Made by a program: the position numbers and the translations under genes
Shown here: positions 3,821-23,189 of the stretch, in pieces
How the letters are laid out: every line of letters starts with the position of its first letter
Numbering within the stretch: the first letter of the stretch is position 1
The notes under the pieces: model-generated
Database searches by the model: none
Told to the model about the DNA's origin: nothing
What the model saw: only the letters and a program-made list of their open reading frames with translations
From: Spirochaetales bacterium
GTDB taxonomy: Bacteria > Spirochaetota > Spirochaetia > JAGLYY01
NCBI GenBank assembly: GCA_023131935.1
Contig: JAGLYY010000030.1
Coordinates: 1 to 32,022, forward strand
DNA length: 32,022 bases
Direction: 5' to 3'

Positions 3821-4861
3821 TTAAAATTCCTCGTCACGATAGCTCTGGAAGGTTTCCGATTGCTGTGGCTGATCGGAAATCCCCCCGCGGAGGAGCGGAT
3901 TATTCGAAAGTCCCTCGAGAACATCTTTCCCCTTATCAAGGGCTTCCCGTGAATCCTCCAGAATACCGGAAATCTGGGGAGTAGTGGTATTGATATACGA
4001 AGTGAAATCCTTGAGTTCAAGAATAGTTGCGTTAAGGTTCGTGAGAATCAATTCAATCTGTGAAAACAGCGCGTTATCATCGTCAAGAATAGCAGCAATC
4101 GAACCTTTCGGATCGAGCAGTTTTGTTACAAGGCCTGTAGGGTCTGAGAGTTCCCCTGTGAGATGGGTAATATCTGCCATAATATCATCAATCTGACGAG
4201 ATACTTCGGCAAGAATCTCATCCAAGGAAGAGGTGATGCTGCTGACCTCTACCATGATTTGCCCCACCGGGCCGCTGGTATCACCGGCAAAAGCGCTGTT
4301 CACACTCCGGATGAGGGTATTAAGGTTTACTACCGCTTCATCAACATTAGTGAGAATTGGCTGTATATCATTGAGTATAGCACTAATTGTGTCCGTTTTC
4401 GCAGGCATGCTGACAGCTTTTTCTTTTACAAGTCTAAAACCCTGCTTGGAATCAGTGGAGAAAATAGTGCTTCCCTCGGGAGGAGGATCGCCGGGGATCT
4501 TGCTGGGATAGAACTGAAGCCCACCCCCGAGACCAAGCGGGCTTGCTGTAAGCTCTAATACTGAATTAGGGCGTACTTTGTGAATATACGCTTCTTCAAT
4601 GTAAAACTTTATTCGTACCGTATGGTTCTCGTTATCAAGGAGTTCGATCCCCTCGACAGATCCGATACGAAAGCCCCTTAGCATGATGGACATTCCCACG
4701 TTTATTCCGCTTGCTGAATTGAAGGTACTGATATAATGATATTTTTTCGAGAACCAGTCCTGATTCACACCCATAAGGATAAGGATAGCCGCGATGGCAA
4801 TGAGCGCGATGAGAATAAAAATGCCGCTTATCTGGTCCGCATACCGTATCTTGAACTTCAT
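3821..4861 (-). CDS. mlaD: MlaD/MCE family lipid-transport substrate-binding protein with long C-terminal helical region
   Basis: Single N-terminal TM followed by MCE domain (YHYISTFNSASGINVGMSIMLRGFRIGSVEGIELL...VRIKFYIEE); directly downstream of mlaF/mlaE homologues. Confidence 0.9.
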   Translation of the reverse strand: MKFKIRYADQISGIFILIALIAIAAILILMGVNQDWFSKKYHYISTFNSASGINVGMSIMLRGFRIGSVEGIELLDNENHTVRIKFYIEEAYIHKVRPNSVLELTASPLGLGGGLQFYPSKIPGDPPPEGSTIFSTDSKQGFRLVKEKAVSMPAKTDTISAILNDIQPILTNVDEAVVNLNTLIRSVNSAFAGDTSGPVGQIMVEVSSITSSLDEILAEVSRQIDDIMADITHLTGELSDPTGLVTKLLDPKGSIAAILDDDNALFSQIELILTNLNATILELKDFTSYINTTTPQISGILEDSREALDKGKDVLEGLSNNPLLRGGISDQPQQSETFQSYRDEEF

Positions 4862-4919
4862 AAGACAATTCTATGCATTTCACTGTTCCACTGTCAATCT
4901 ATAAGTCTCTGTATACTGC

Positions 4920-5723
4920 CTATAGTCTAAAATCATCATCACCAAGAATATCGAGAATGGCGCTATCGAAAGCTTCTGGTTTTGTAAAAACTTTAGCAAG
5001 GATCTCGGAGGAAAGAGGATTGGTTGTATTCAGAATAGTATTAACCTGACCTTGCTCGATAATACGTCCATCATGCATTATGATGATCCTGTCCGCCAGT
5101 TTGCTTACAAGTTCCGCGGAATGGCTGACAGCGATAATTGAAACGCCCTCCTCCTTTTTTCTTTTTAACAGATTGAGGATCCGGTCAATGGTATGGTGGT
5201 CGATTGAACTGAAGGGGTCATCGAGAAAAAGAATGTCAGGATCAGTTACCATTGCCCGCGCGAAGGAAACAATTTTTCTTTCCCCCATGGAGAGTTGGTC
5301 CGGTCTCAGATTTGGGCTGTCCCGGTAACCCGATTGATCAAGAATTTTACCGATCCTTCCATTCATTTCCGCGGCGGAGAGCTCGGGAAAGTGAAATTGA
5401 AGCGGGAGGGCGAGGTTTTGAAATACCGATTTATTCGCCCAGAGAGCGGCATCCTGAAAAGCAAATCCGTTTCCTTTTCTGAAAAGCCGTATATTCCCCG
5501 GGTCCATATCATAGATATTTTCTCCGTGAAACCGAACCGTACCCCTGTCTGGAGGGACAATACCAGCGGCAATTTTTAAAAAAAGACTCTTACCGCACCC
5601 GGAAAATCCCATAATGGCGGTTGTTTCTCCACCGTTGAAAATAGAGCTGACCCGTTTGATGATGGGCCGGGTTCCTTTCAGTTTAATGATATGTTGAAGT
5701 TCGATGAACGGTTCCATATTCAA
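4920..5723 (-). CDS. mlaF: ABC transporter ATP-binding protein, MlaF type
   Basis: Walker A GFSGCGKS, signature LSMGERK, Walker B ILFLDDP, H-loop VSHS; in the mlaEFD context. Confidence 0.93.
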   Translation of the reverse strand: MNMEPFIELQHIIKLKGTRPIIKRVSSIFNGGETTAIMGFSGCGKSLFLKIAAGIVPPDRGTVRFHGENIYDMDPGNIRLFRKGNGFAFQDAALWANKSVFQNLALPLQFHFPELSAAEMNGRIGKILDQSGYRDSPNLRPDQLSMGERKIVSFARAMVTDPDILFLDDPFSSIDHHTIDRILNLLKRKKEEGVSIIAVSHSAELVSKLADRIIIMHDGRIIEQGQVNTILNTTNPLSSEILAKVFTKPEAFDSAILDILGDDDFRL

Positions 5724-9206: not shown

Positions 9207-9249
9207 TGGAAGGCTGTAGGTGGATAGACTGTAGGGAAGGGAAATACGG

Positions 9250-9343
9250 AAGATGGAGACGGGAGGACGGAGAACGGAAGATTATAGAATCTTCTCTTAT
9301 TTCCGTTCTTCCTTCCTTCGGTCTCCGGTTCCCTGTCTCCCTT
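9250..9343. repeat. Purine-rich/pyrimidine-rich imperfect inverted repeat in intergenic region
   Basis: Left arm GGAGACGGGAGGACGGAGAACGGAAGATTAT roughly complements right arm CTTATTTCCGTTCTTCCTTCCTTCGGTCTCCGGTTCCCTGTCTCC around GAAGATTATAGAATCTTC. Confidence 0.5.
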
Positions 9344-9408
9344 CTACATCCTAAACAACCTGAATAGCTGCCTCGATTTTTAAATTCATGCATGGATAAT
9401 CGGAATAG

Positions 9409-9475: not shown

Positions 9476-9547
9476 GCCAGAATAGCTCAGAGGTAGAGCA
9501 GCTCACTCGTAATGAGCAGGTCCAGGGTTCAATTCCCTGTTCTGGCT
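9476..9547 (+). tRNA. tRNA-Thr (anticodon CGT)
   Basis: Full cloverleaf: GCCAGAA/TTCTGGC acceptor, GCTC/GAGC D-stem, GCTCA-CTCGTAA-TGAGC anticodon arm, CAGGG-TTCAATT-CCCTG T-arm; 72 nt, CCA not encoded. Confidence 0.95.
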
Positions 9548-9709: not shown

Positions 9710-9961
9710 ATGTTGGATAAAGAGTTTACATATTATGAAAGTCAGAAGAAGCAACTCTTCGAAAAATACCCTGAGAAGTTCATATACATCGTTGAAAATA
9801 CTGTTTTCGGACCTTTTGATACAAAGGAAGCCGCCCTTGCTGATGCACTAAAAGAACACGAAGCTGGAACATTCCTATTACAACAATGTTTGGAAGAAGA
9901 CCAGCTAATGATGAGATTCCATTCAAGAGTGAGCTTCAGTCCACATGTTCAAATTCACTAA
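9710..9961 (+). CDS. Small protein of unknown function, overlapping and upstream of the retropepsin-like protease
   Basis: 83-aa ORF preceded by AGAGGGA; YIVENTVFGPFDTKEAALADALKEHEAGTFLLQQC. Overlaps the next ORF by 17 nt. Confidence 0.75.
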   Translation: MLDKEFTYYESQKKQLFEKYPEKFIYIVENTVFGPFDTKEAALADALKEHEAGTFLLQQCLEEDQLMMRFHSRVSFSPHVQIH

Positions 9962-10523
9962 ATCTCGCTACAGCGCTCTATATTCCGAAAACCCGAACGG
10001 ACTGGCAAGAGCAGTTATAACACCAGCAAAAATTCGAATACCTCTGATATTTACAAATCTGAAGCATGACTTCTTCGAGACTGGGGCATTATGGGATACC
10101 GGTGCTACAAATACAGTAATTTCAGTGAAGCTGGCTCAAGAGCTTGGTTTGCCTACAACAGGAAAAGCGAAAACTAGGGGTGTCCATGGTGAGAATGTAG
10201 TAAACACCCACCTCATTGATATTTTGCTGATGGATTCTGTTCTATTCCCAACATGGCAAGTATCCGCAGGTATCATTGATCCCGATAATAGGGGAATAGG
10301 ATTACTGATTGGAATGGATATTATAAGCCTTGGTGATTTTGCCTTAACGCATAATGGAGATAATACGGCTTTCTCTTTCTTAGTGCCTCATCTGGAAGAA
10401 CCTGTTGATTATCGAACTTCACTTGAAAAGCATGGCAAGGAGAGAAAGCGGAAAACTGTAAATGCTCAAGATAGGCGTGCTTACAATGCCACGGTAAAGA
10501 GGAAAAAAAAGAAAAGGAGATAA
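9945..10523 (+). CDS. Retropepsin-like (clan AA) aspartic protease domain protein with basic C-terminal tail
   Basis: Catalytic-type motif GALWDTGATNTVIS and downstream hydrophobic-hydrophobic-G motif GLLIGMDIISLGDFALT; C-terminus ERKRKTVNAQDRRAYNATVKRKKKKRR. Confidence 0.8.
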   Translation: MFKFTKSRYSALYSENPNGLARAVITPAKIRIPLIFTNLKHDFFETGALWDTGATNTVISVKLAQELGLPTTGKAKTRGVHGENVVNTHLIDILLMDSVLFPTWQVSAGIIDPDNRGIGLLIGMDIISLGDFALTHNGDNTAFSFLVPHLEEPVDYRTSLEKHGKERKRKTVNAQDRRAYNATVKRKKKKRR

Positions 10524-10623: not shown

Positions 10624-11043
10624 TTATTCAACGCCCAGGTATTTCAGAATGGCAGCTGCGAAATCACGAAAATCCTTGAGATGTCTTGTGCAAATTGTGT
10701 ATACAACATTCCAGTCGATTTTCTCATATTCATGAACAGCTATATTGCGGAATCCTACTGATTTCCGCATTCGCTCGGCTAAATCTGTAGAAATGACATT
10801 ATGATCAGCAATGGCTTTGAAAGTTTCAGACATTGTCTTTGGTGTGCGTATATCAGTTGAAGAAAGTATATGCGATCCGATATCCACTGAAATCTGGACG
10901 GCACGTTCTAGATTCAAGGTGATGATATCCTGGAGATCGAAATCCCGCAGCAAAATATCAGCTTTAGGAGGTGTCTTTTCTTCTATCCTATTGATGTACT
11001 TCTTGAGCAGCTCAAGTTTTGAAATTATGAGATCATTTTCCAT
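10624..11043 (-). CDS. hepT: HepT-like HEPN ribonuclease toxin (DUF86)
   Basis: 139-aa alpha-helical ORF with the RX4HXY motif (FRNIAVHEY); overlaps an upstream MNT-type gene. Confidence 0.88.
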   Translation of the reverse strand: MENDLIISKLELLKKYINRIEEKTPPKADILLRDFDLQDIITLNLERAVQISVDIGSHILSSTDIRTPKTMSETFKAIADHNVISTDLAERMRKSVGFRNIAVHEYEKIDWNVVYTICTRHLKDFRDFAAAILKYLGVE

Positions 11044-11437
11044 GTGCGAATCTCTTTACCTTCTCCCGAATCATCATCCTGTAATTCGGAAGCATATCAG
11101 CATCGTAAAACAACATCTTCTTTATGAAATACGCCAGTAGTTCAGGTTTTTCGTTTTTAACACGTATACAGTTTGTAAGAACCTGTTGCAGGATTAAGCC
11201 ATCAAGTATAGCTATATCCAGCAGATCCACTTCTCGTTTAAGGAGATCAGAAAGATCTACCTGCATTTCCGCTAGTTTTTCAGCGCTGATCTCCGAACTG
11301 CTACATACTGCAATATCGATATCACTATCTTCTCTTAAAGTATCTCGCGAAATGGAACCGAATAGGAGGCATAAAGGGATCTCCGGGTTGTTATTGAGAT
11401 ACGTTTTCAGTTTTTGAATAATCTCCTCTTTCCCCAT
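11033..11437 (-). CDS. mntA: MntA-like minimal nucleotidyltransferase antitoxin
   Basis: GSX10DXD motif: LFGSISRDTLREDSDIDIAVCSS; directly upstream of and overlapping hepT. Confidence 0.9.
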   Translation of the reverse strand: MGKEEIIQKLKTYLNNNPEIPLCLLFGSISRDTLREDSDIDIAVCSSSEISAEKLAEMQVDLSDLLKREVDLLDIAILDGLILQQVLTNCIRVKNEKPELLAYFIKKMLFYDADMLPNYRMMIREKVKRFAHGK

Positions 11438-22768: not shown

Positions 22769-23162
22769 GGGACAGATCAGATAGTCGCTTTCCTGCAATT
22801 TGGCGGGGAAGAGGAAAGTCCGGGCTCCGTAGAACATGATGCCGGGTAACACCCGGGCACTTGCATGGGTTTTCTTCGGAAAAGCTATGCAAGCGACAGA
22901 TAGTGCCGCAGAAAAGATACCACCGGGCGCTGTAAAACCTTTGGTATTACAAGGGTCCGGTAAGGGTGAAAAGGTGGGGTAAGAGCCCACCGGCTTTGCT
23001 GGTAACAGCAAGCGCATGGTAAACCTCATCAGGAGCAAAGCCAAACAGCAGATGGGTAGTTCGTCCGTTAAACCTGCGGGTAGGCTGCTGAAACAGATGG
23101 GTAATCTTCTGTGATAGATAGATGACTATCCTTTGACAGAATCCGGCTTACCGATCTGTCCC
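22769..23162 (+). ncRNA. rnpB: RNase P RNA (bacterial class A)
   Basis: P1 stem GGGACAGATC/GATCTGTCCC closes the ends; universal blocks GAGGAAAGTCCGGGCTCC, ACAGATAGTGCCGCAGAAAAGATACC, GGTGAAAAGGTGGGGTAAGAGCCCACC, and TAGATAGATGACTATCC...ACAGAATCCGGCTTA. Confidence 0.97.
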
Positions 23163-23189
23163 GTTTATTATTGAAGGCAGAATTGAATT

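What the first reader, a model, noticed from the sequence alone, without database searches (positions are those of the whole stretch)
9710..10523. Overlapping small ORF + retropepsin-like protease with a very basic C-terminal tail: candidate uncharacterised two-gene module
Seen: an 83-aa ORF overlaps by 17 nt an ORF with a retropepsin-type DTGA motif and a matching C-terminal GMDI motif. The protease ends in ERKRKTVNAQDRRAYNATVKRKKKKRR, a tail not expected of the protease fold. Established: clan AA retropepsins work as dimers with one DTG/DSG per monomer, so one motif here implies a homodimer. Inference: the small partner may be a substrate, inhibitor or regulator, and the tail may bind nucleic acid or ribosomes. 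The location beside a HEPN-MNT toxin-antitoxin pair hints at a stress or defence role.
Basis: partly seen in the sequence, partly recalled or inferred. Interest (0 to 1): 0.62.

Follow-up and report, generated by a model that had tools for sequence, protein, structure and literature searches.

The report
Retropepsin paired with dedicated small partner
Next to a small gene sits a bacterial gene for a protease related to the HIV protease; the same pair recurs across about 20 bacterial phyla and some phages, so the small protein is very probably the protease's own dedicated, unstudied regulator.

Summary
ORF1 (9710-9961, 83 aa) overlaps ORF2 (9945-10523, 192 aa) by 17 nt. ORF2 is a clan AA retropepsin by Pfam, and an AlphaFold model of a homologue resembles Rickettsia APRc. 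The two-gene module is strongly conserved. Of 192 loci chosen by the protease alone, 178 carry the same small ORF directly upstream; of 30 chosen by the small protein, 28 carry the protease. It is patchy across Spirochaetota and about 18 other NCBI phylum names, and rare in phages. The small protein is a relative of Pfam DUF5678, which has no known function. In a sample of three phyla, 32 of 37 DUF5678 proteins precede a retropepsin, some of another type. DUF5678 can be fused to a receiver domain (certain) or a Phd/YefM-like antitoxin piece (marginal), which suggests a regulator rather than a substrate. The basic tail is one of two interchangeable C-termini; the other is a SEC-C zinc motif. 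Both are almost absent from neighbouring genes. The HEPN-MNT neighbour occurs only in this window and says nothing about function. I favour a protease held in check by a bound DUF5678 partner and docked by its tail to ribosome or RNA; inhibition and docking are inferred.

The parts
9710..9961 (+). ORF1, 83-aa small partner, relative of Pfam DUF5678; predicted alpha-beta-beta-alpha-beta with a conserved but unfolded C-terminal peptide (here MRFHSRVSF)
   Evidence: found directly upstream of the protease in 178 of 192 homologous loci
9945..10523 (+). ORF2, 192-aa clan AA retropepsin-like aspartic protease
   Evidence: Pfam PF13650 8.3e-8 and PF13975 1.1e-7; Foldseek of a homologue's model to Rickettsia APRc 5c9f, E 2.5e-7
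9945..9961 (+). 17-nt overlap of the two reading frames; translational coupling likely (inferred)
   Evidence: across homologues the median gap from small stop to protease start is 2 nt and 40% overlap
10095..10106 (+). Catalytic motif DTGA (residues 51-54)
   Evidence: Asp in 178 of 178 ungapped homologues
10305..10322 (+). Hydrophobic-hydrophobic-Gly motif LIGMDI (residues 121-126)
   Evidence: Gly in 181 of 181 homologues
10440..10520 (+). Very basic C-terminal tail (residues 166-192); in homologues this position is basic, a SEC-C motif, or absent
9476..9547 (+). tRNA-Thr(CGT) just upstream; context, not part of the module
10624..11437 (-). HepT-MntA (HEPN-MNT) toxin-antitoxin pair; a neighbour, not part of the module
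   Evidence: NF047751 1.5e-42; NF047752 1.6e-20; association not conserved

Best explanation
The two ORFs form one conserved, self-contained and horizontally mobile unit: a retropepsin, presumably a homodimer with one DTG per subunit, and its dedicated DUF5678-type partner made from the same mRNA. I think the small protein binds the protease and keeps it in check (an inhibitor or antitoxin-like regulator) until a signal removes it, and that the C-terminal tail docks the protease on ribosomes or RNA, so the targets are probably cytoplasmic proteins of that compartment. Shown here: conserved pairing, retropepsin sequence and fold, tail alternation. Predicted: a confident docking of the two domains. 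Inferred: inhibition as the sign of the regulation, ribosome or RNA docking, and the nature of the targets.
For: Pairing: 178 of 192 protease-selected loci, 28 of 30 and 19 of 22 small-selected loci. Median spacing is 2 nt, the opposite of a chance neighbour. In sampling by DUF5678 alone, 7 of 7 Spirochaetota, 4 of 4 Bacteroidota and 21 of 26 loci in the phylum of an Aminicenantes genome precede a retropepsin, including other retropepsin types, so the partnership is older than this subfamily. Binding: AlphaFold2 of a natural in-frame pair read through its stop gives pLDDT 88 and pTM 0.80; by my estimate about 0.66 would be expected if the small domain were not placed. Regulator: DUF5678 fused to a receiver domain upstream of a retropepsin (L334; Response_reg 1.2e-22, DUF5678 4e-9); Phd/YefM profile matches inside DUF5678 ORFs (E 0.0014, 0.18, 0.35, 1.5; four of 11 matches in two genomes of over 8 Mb each). 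Tail: SEC-C in 52 and strongly basic in 43 of 181 against 0 and 6 of 232 neighbours, with at least 23 SEC-C/basic changes on the tree. The SecA C-terminal tail with its metal-binding domain crosslinks to ribosomal protein uL23 (PMC6620043).
Against: No activity, binding or toxicity was measured. About 7% of protease loci lack the partner, so the free protease is not always lethal. Some DUF5678 proteins lack a protease (L391, L394, L401). About a third of proteases have neither tail type. Inter-protein covariation is not significant after permutation and phylogenetic control. The fused-chain model carries a tether and contains one protease copy, not a dimer. The antitoxin-like N-termini got no PDB match.
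Confidence: 0.5

Rival explanations
1. The small protein is an activating cofactor or adaptor that brings substrates to the protease or completes its active site, as in regulated proteolysis; no toxicity is involved.
For: Near-obligate pairing. A receiver-domain fusion is as compatible with an activator as with an inhibitor. The protease keeps its catalytic residues everywhere. In Brachyspira the pair sits at a fixed place next to a dnaN-like gene, which suits a housekeeping use.
Against: Patchy distribution (29 of 393 Spirochaetota genomes), heavy transfer between phyla, placement next to integrases and repressors in some viral contigs, and Phd/YefM-like fusions look more like an accessory conflict or addiction module.
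Confidence: 0.25
2. The module is an anti-phage (abortive infection) or toxin-antitoxin system with a retropepsin as the toxic effector.
For: PADLOC-DB lists retropepsins related to ORF2 as two-gene phage-defence candidates (PDC-M08B, 9e-8; PDC-M52B for the other retropepsin type). Accessory, self-contained two-gene layout; presence in proviral contigs near integrases and CI-like repressors.
Against: Nearest neighbours of 74 genomic loci show only scattered defence hits. The HEPN-MNT association is unique to this window. No DUF5678 protein matched the small-partner models of those candidates. No plasmid record and only 5 of 50,697 phage records hold the protease.
Confidence: 0.25
3. The small protein is chiefly a substrate: the protease cuts its conserved, unfolded C-terminal peptide (consensus YTQTFHSRVxF) and so switches or matures it.
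For: The C-terminal peptide is conserved (F/Y71, S73, R74, V75, F77) yet predicted without structure, and retropepsins favour extended hydrophobic peptides (general knowledge).
Against: DUF5678 proteins that pair with other retropepsins lack this peptide, and receiver or Phd/YefM-like fusions fit a regulator better.
Confidence: 0.12
4. Two unrelated neighbouring ORFs, one perhaps not a gene; the tail is a compositional accident.
For: Neither ORF1 nor ORF2 has a characterised close homologue, and ORF1 alone hits no Pfam model.
Against: Conserved pairing and sequence in more than 170 loci.
Confidence: 0.01

Closest known systems
APRc of Rickettsia (retropepsin-like, 5c9f; PMC4140852)
   Same: Nearest solved fold to the modelled protease (Foldseek E 2.5e-7); single DTG per chain, bacterial
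   Different: APRc is membrane-embedded and found in Rickettsia; no DUF5678 partner or SEC-C/basic tail is described in the passages read
Ddi1 and retroviral proteases
   Same: Sequence profile matches the Ddi1 RVP domain (1.1e-6) and foamy virus and HTLV proteases; LIGMD motif like LIGLD of Ddi1
   Different: No ubiquitin-like or UBA domains; encoded with a small bacterial partner
RimB / RloA retropepsins of Pseudomonas (PMC12239564)
   Same: Bacterial retropepsin-like proteases that work with operon partners
   Different: Partners are RimK/RloC ATP-grasp and RloB proteins; RloA is secreted. No DUF5678 and no overlap layout
PADLOC candidates PDC-M08 and PDC-M52
   Same: Entries whose B protein is a retropepsin; the PDC-M08A model is 86 positions long, so a small protein too
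   Different: ORF1 and other DUF5678 proteins match no A model. The window ORF2 reaches only 30 bits. No paper on PDC-M08 was found
Pfam DUF5678 (PF18929)
   Same: Relatives of ORF1 match it above the cut-off (L056 4.6e-6; 7 of 19 members at E <= 0.5, best 9.4e-8)
   Different: The window's own ORF1 does not reach the model by itself; ORF1-type proteins carry an extra conserved C-terminal peptide
Type II toxin-antitoxin operons
   Same: Small gene first, tight or overlapping with a larger effector gene, patchy; some DUF5678 proteins carry Phd/YefM-like N-terminal pieces
   Different: No retropepsin toxin is known to me; the window's partner has no DNA-binding domain; toxicity untested

Membership tests
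Clan AA retropepsins | Asp-Thr/Ser-Gly catalytic motif, one per chain | tested here: met
   DTGA at residues 51-54; Asp in all 178 ungapped homologues
Clan AA retropepsins | Hydrophobic-hydrophobic-Gly motif after the flap | tested here: met
   LIGMD; Gly in 181 of 181
Clan AA retropepsins | Retropepsin fold | tested here: met
   Model of homologue L127 matches 5c9f, E 2.5e-7, prob 1.00; Pfam on the window protein itself
Clan AA retropepsins | Active as a homodimer, inhibited by active-site mutation | not testable with these tools
   Needs protein; no multimer prediction available here
DUF5678 (PF18929) | Reaches the curated cut-off | tested here: inconclusive
   Window ORF1: no hit. Homologues L056 and five module members exceed it
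PADLOC PDC-M08 | B protein is a PDC-M08B retropepsin | tested here: met
   9e-8, 30.2 bits; the system's own score cut-off is not given by the tool
PADLOC PDC-M08 | A protein matches a PDC-M08A model | tested here: not met
   No hit for ORF1 or 18 homologues, nor for 7 other DUF5678 proteins
Toxin-antitoxin system | Two-gene operon with small first gene, adjacent or overlapping | tested here: met
Toxin-antitoxin system | Effector is toxic and the small protein neutralises it | not testable with these tools
   Needs expression tests
Toxin-antitoxin system | Antitoxin carries a DNA-binding domain (usual in type II) | tested here: not met
   None in ORF1. In other DUF5678 proteins a Phd/YefM-like piece at E 0.0014 to 1.5
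Anti-phage defence system | Enrichment among defence genes | tested here: not met
   Scattered single hits among 122 nearest neighbours; HEPN-MNT only in the window. No random-locus control was run
SEC-C proteins | C-x-C...C-[HC] motif at the C-terminus | tested here: not met
   Absent from the window protein (basic tail instead); present in 52 of 181 homologues, Pfam 8.4e-8 in L056

The most novel reading that the evidence does not exclude
DUF5678-retropepsin pairs are a new, widespread class of bacterial effector-antidote system in which the effector is an HIV-protease-like aspartic protease aimed at the ribosome or translating proteins through a SEC-C or basic tail, and the DUF5678 protein is its antidote, sometimes under receiver-domain or self-repressing control.
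Probability: 0.28. Interest if true: 0.88.

Novelty: new variant of a known kind. Interest (0 to 1): 0.63.

Why it matters
If right, it gives a function (dedicated retropepsin partner) to a Pfam family of unknown function and shows that a large group of bacterial retropepsins across about 20 phyla works with a co-encoded regulator. Natural protein regulators of retropepsins would interest protease and HIV-protease biochemists. A retropepsin docked on ribosomes or RNA by alternative tails would be a new kind of bacterial proteolysis and is directly testable. If the protease proves toxic, it would be the first aspartic-protease toxin-antitoxin type known to me.

Tried and rejected
Single-protein scans of GTDB and IMG/VR contigs with ORF2 found nothing; alignment queries were needed. 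No match in 72,556 plasmid records. Covariation between the proteins (mean-field DCA, 181 pairs, Neff about 163): the best pair, 1.23, barely exceeds the largest of 12 permuted maxima, 1.19, and independent-pairs tests on the tree are not significant, so I do not use it. Fold search of the small protein: no significant PDB match (best E 0.99); the recurring ubiquitin-family hits have probability of about 0.1 or less and are rejected as evidence for a ubiquitin-like fold. PDB search with the small-protein profile gave only a local match to PUF4, taken as spurious. PDC-M08A was not found in the phylum, but nothing rang in the control genomes either, so that is uninformative. HEPN-MNT as functional context: rejected. 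Attachment-site repeats around the tRNA genes: none convincing. Promoter and terminator scan: nothing. Antitoxin-like N-termini against the PDB: no support. Literature: no paper on DUF5678 function, on SEC-C with retropepsin, or on PDC-M08 in the held library.

Full report
CHECK OF THE OBSERVATION. The two ORFs, the 17-nt overlap, the DTGA and GMDI motifs and the basic tail are all present at the stated places. ORF2 matches Pfam Asp_protease_2 (8.3e-8) and gag-asp_proteas (1.1e-7) above their cut-offs. Its family profile matches the solved Ddi1 and retroviral proteases (1.1e-6 and weaker). ORF1 hits no family by itself. The genome belongs to Spirochaetota: this is inferred from its phylum mates, which include Brachyspira records seen as such.

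CONSERVATION OF THE PAIR. Single-sequence scans of public contigs found nothing, but a search of 393 genomes of the phylum found the protease in 29, and in nearly all of these a small ORF of the same kind lies just upstream. Alignment searches then brought in at least 242 relatives from GTDB contigs, at least 121 from IMG/VR contigs, and three Leptospira phages. Of 192 loci selected by the protease alone, 178 have the small partner directly upstream, and no small ORF was found elsewhere in those loci. In the reverse direction, 28 of 30 loci selected by the small-protein profile, and 19 of 22 in viral contigs, carry the protease. The median distance from small stop to protease start is 2 nt and about 40% overlap; these are estimates, because start codons were assigned mechanically. 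The loci contain some redundancy.

DISTRIBUTION. Genomic loci carry 19 NCBI phylum names (some are candidate phyla within Patescibacteria), and the protease tree needs 27 phylum changes against 45 for shuffled labels: partly vertical, with much transfer. No plasmid record has it. In viral contigs the nearest genes include CI-like repressors, integrases, methyltransferases and head genes, but no single recurring neighbour. Around genomic loci the nearest neighbours are mixed housekeeping, mobile and occasional defence genes. So the unit is two genes, not part of a larger operon. HepT/MntA relatives occur near the module only in this window.

THE SMALL PROTEIN. Seven of 19 aligned members match Pfam DUF5678 at E <= 0.5, best 9.4e-8, and L056 exceeds the cut-off. 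I therefore sampled DUF5678 itself. In Spirochaetota 7 of 7 hits precede a retropepsin, in Bacteroidota 4 of 4, and in the phylum of an Aminicenantes genome 21 of 26 loci that I examined, judged from motif and layout. Several of these retropepsins are of other types (LDSGA, IDTGS, and DCG, DPG or DTV variants). In 38 genomes chosen for having the module, extra DUF5678 genes of other types also mostly precede retropepsins. DUF5678 is therefore, as far as sampled, a retropepsin-partner domain. In L334 it is the C-terminal part of a response-regulator receiver protein whose gene overlaps a diverged retropepsin (Pfam confirmation). In the third phylum it is the C-terminal part of 110-300 aa proteins. 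Some of these have N-termini that a Phd/YefM antitoxin profile matches marginally: E 0.0014, 0.18, 0.35 and 1.5, that is four of the 11 matches in two genomes, on independent DUF5678 ORFs. A PDB profile search did not support this. Other N-termini look like ribbon-helix-helix proteins from memory only (one search is not significant).

STRUCTURE. In 37 loci the two genes lie in the same frame, so reading the intervening stop as a residue gives a natural tandem chain. AlphaFold2 on L127 with 31 such paired rows gave mean pLDDT 88.4 and pTM 0.80, with only the junction unstructured. From the length and domain sizes I estimate a pTM of about 0.66 if the small domain were not placed relative to the protease, so 0.80 suggests a defined docking. 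Foldseek matches Rickettsia APRc best (5c9f, E 2.5e-7), then retroviral proteases and Ddi1. The window's small protein alone (91 rows) folds as alpha-beta-beta-alpha-beta with a low-confidence C-terminus (pLDDT 82, pTM 0.60) and has no PDB match. Its C-terminal peptide (consensus YTQTFHSRVxF) is conserved although unfolded, which suggests a docking or active-site peptide; this is inference.

THE TAIL. In 181 distinct proteases the C-terminus is a SEC-C motif in 52, strongly basic in 43, weakly basic in 21 and neither in 65. In 232 neighbouring proteins the first two counts are 0 and 6. SEC-C and basic tails interchange at least 23 times on the tree, against 38 for shuffled labels. The tree is a quick FastTree of short sequences, so the count is approximate. 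SEC-C is the SecA metal-binding motif, and the SecA C-terminal tail contacts ribosomes and is needed for nascent-chain binding (PMC6620043). The simplest reading is that both tails dock the protease on ribosomes or RNA. That reading is inferred.

MECHANISM. I commit to a retropepsin controlled by a bound DUF5678 partner, most likely inhibited, with tail-mediated docking (0.5). An activating adaptor (0.25), an anti-phage or toxin-antitoxin role (0.25, overlapping with the first) and a substrate role (0.12) remain open. For inhibition or antidote: gene order and overlap, receiver and Phd/YefM-like fusions, patchy spread, and one Brachyspira locus (L035) where the protease is gutted while the small gene is intact. 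Against: partnerless proteases exist, and some DUF5678 proteins lack a protease.

NOVELTY. Retropepsins in bacteria are known (APRc; RimB and RloA, PMC12239564). PADLOC-DB lists two-gene candidates with retropepsins, PDC-M08 and PDC-M52, but no DUF5678 protein matches their partner models and I found no paper on them or on DUF5678. The DUF5678-retropepsin partnership, the alternating tails and the receiver fusion appear undescribed in the library I could search, which lacks most subscription papers. I rate it a new variant of a known kind.

Noticed in passing
window 9207-9367: Intergenic sequence with an imperfect inverted repeat; similar copies occur at about 30 other places in the genome (87-91% identity over about 150 nt at two of them), so it is probably a MITE-like or REP-like repeat.
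   Followed up: partly
L334 1060-2083: Response-regulator receiver domain fused to DUF5678, overlapping a diverged retropepsin gene: a possible signal-controlled version of the module.
   Followed up: partly
L116 5853, L120 5566, L121 2963, L063 4784, L119 5955, L319 2974: A partnerless retropepsin subfamily in viral contigs begins where an ORF of about 350-390 aa, which looks like a phage tail-tip protein (from memory), ends. It may be inserted in, or coupled to, a tail gene.
   Followed up: no
L011-L015, L035 (Brachyspira): The module sits at a fixed place beside a dnaN-like gene in several Brachyspira, with broken copies in some; in L035 most of the protease is gone while the small gene is intact.
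   Followed up: partly
G000:C188:1324-2028 (loci L342, L343): A 440-aa ORF of the window's genome has two weak retropepsin-like stretches in tandem, perhaps a fused two-domain aspartic protease.
   Followed up: no
L378 / L390 (G715:C15): A 192-aa protein with two DUF5678 copies in tandem, upstream of a retropepsin.
   Followed up: no
L383, L402, L398: Retropepsin-like proteins beside DUF5678 genes with DCG, DPG or DTV in place of DTG; perhaps inactive versions.
   Followed up: no
L222 about 4760-5629: An ORF of about 290 aa made of CSFGE-type five-residue repeats lies downstream of a small-partner ORF that has no protease after it.
   Followed up: no
window 22769-23166: RNase P RNA, bacterial class A.
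   Followed up: no
window 10624-11437, minus strand: HepT-MntA toxin-antitoxin pair between tRNA-Thr and tRNA-Tyr genes, beside the retropepsin module: a small accessory region flanked by tRNA genes.
   Followed up: partly
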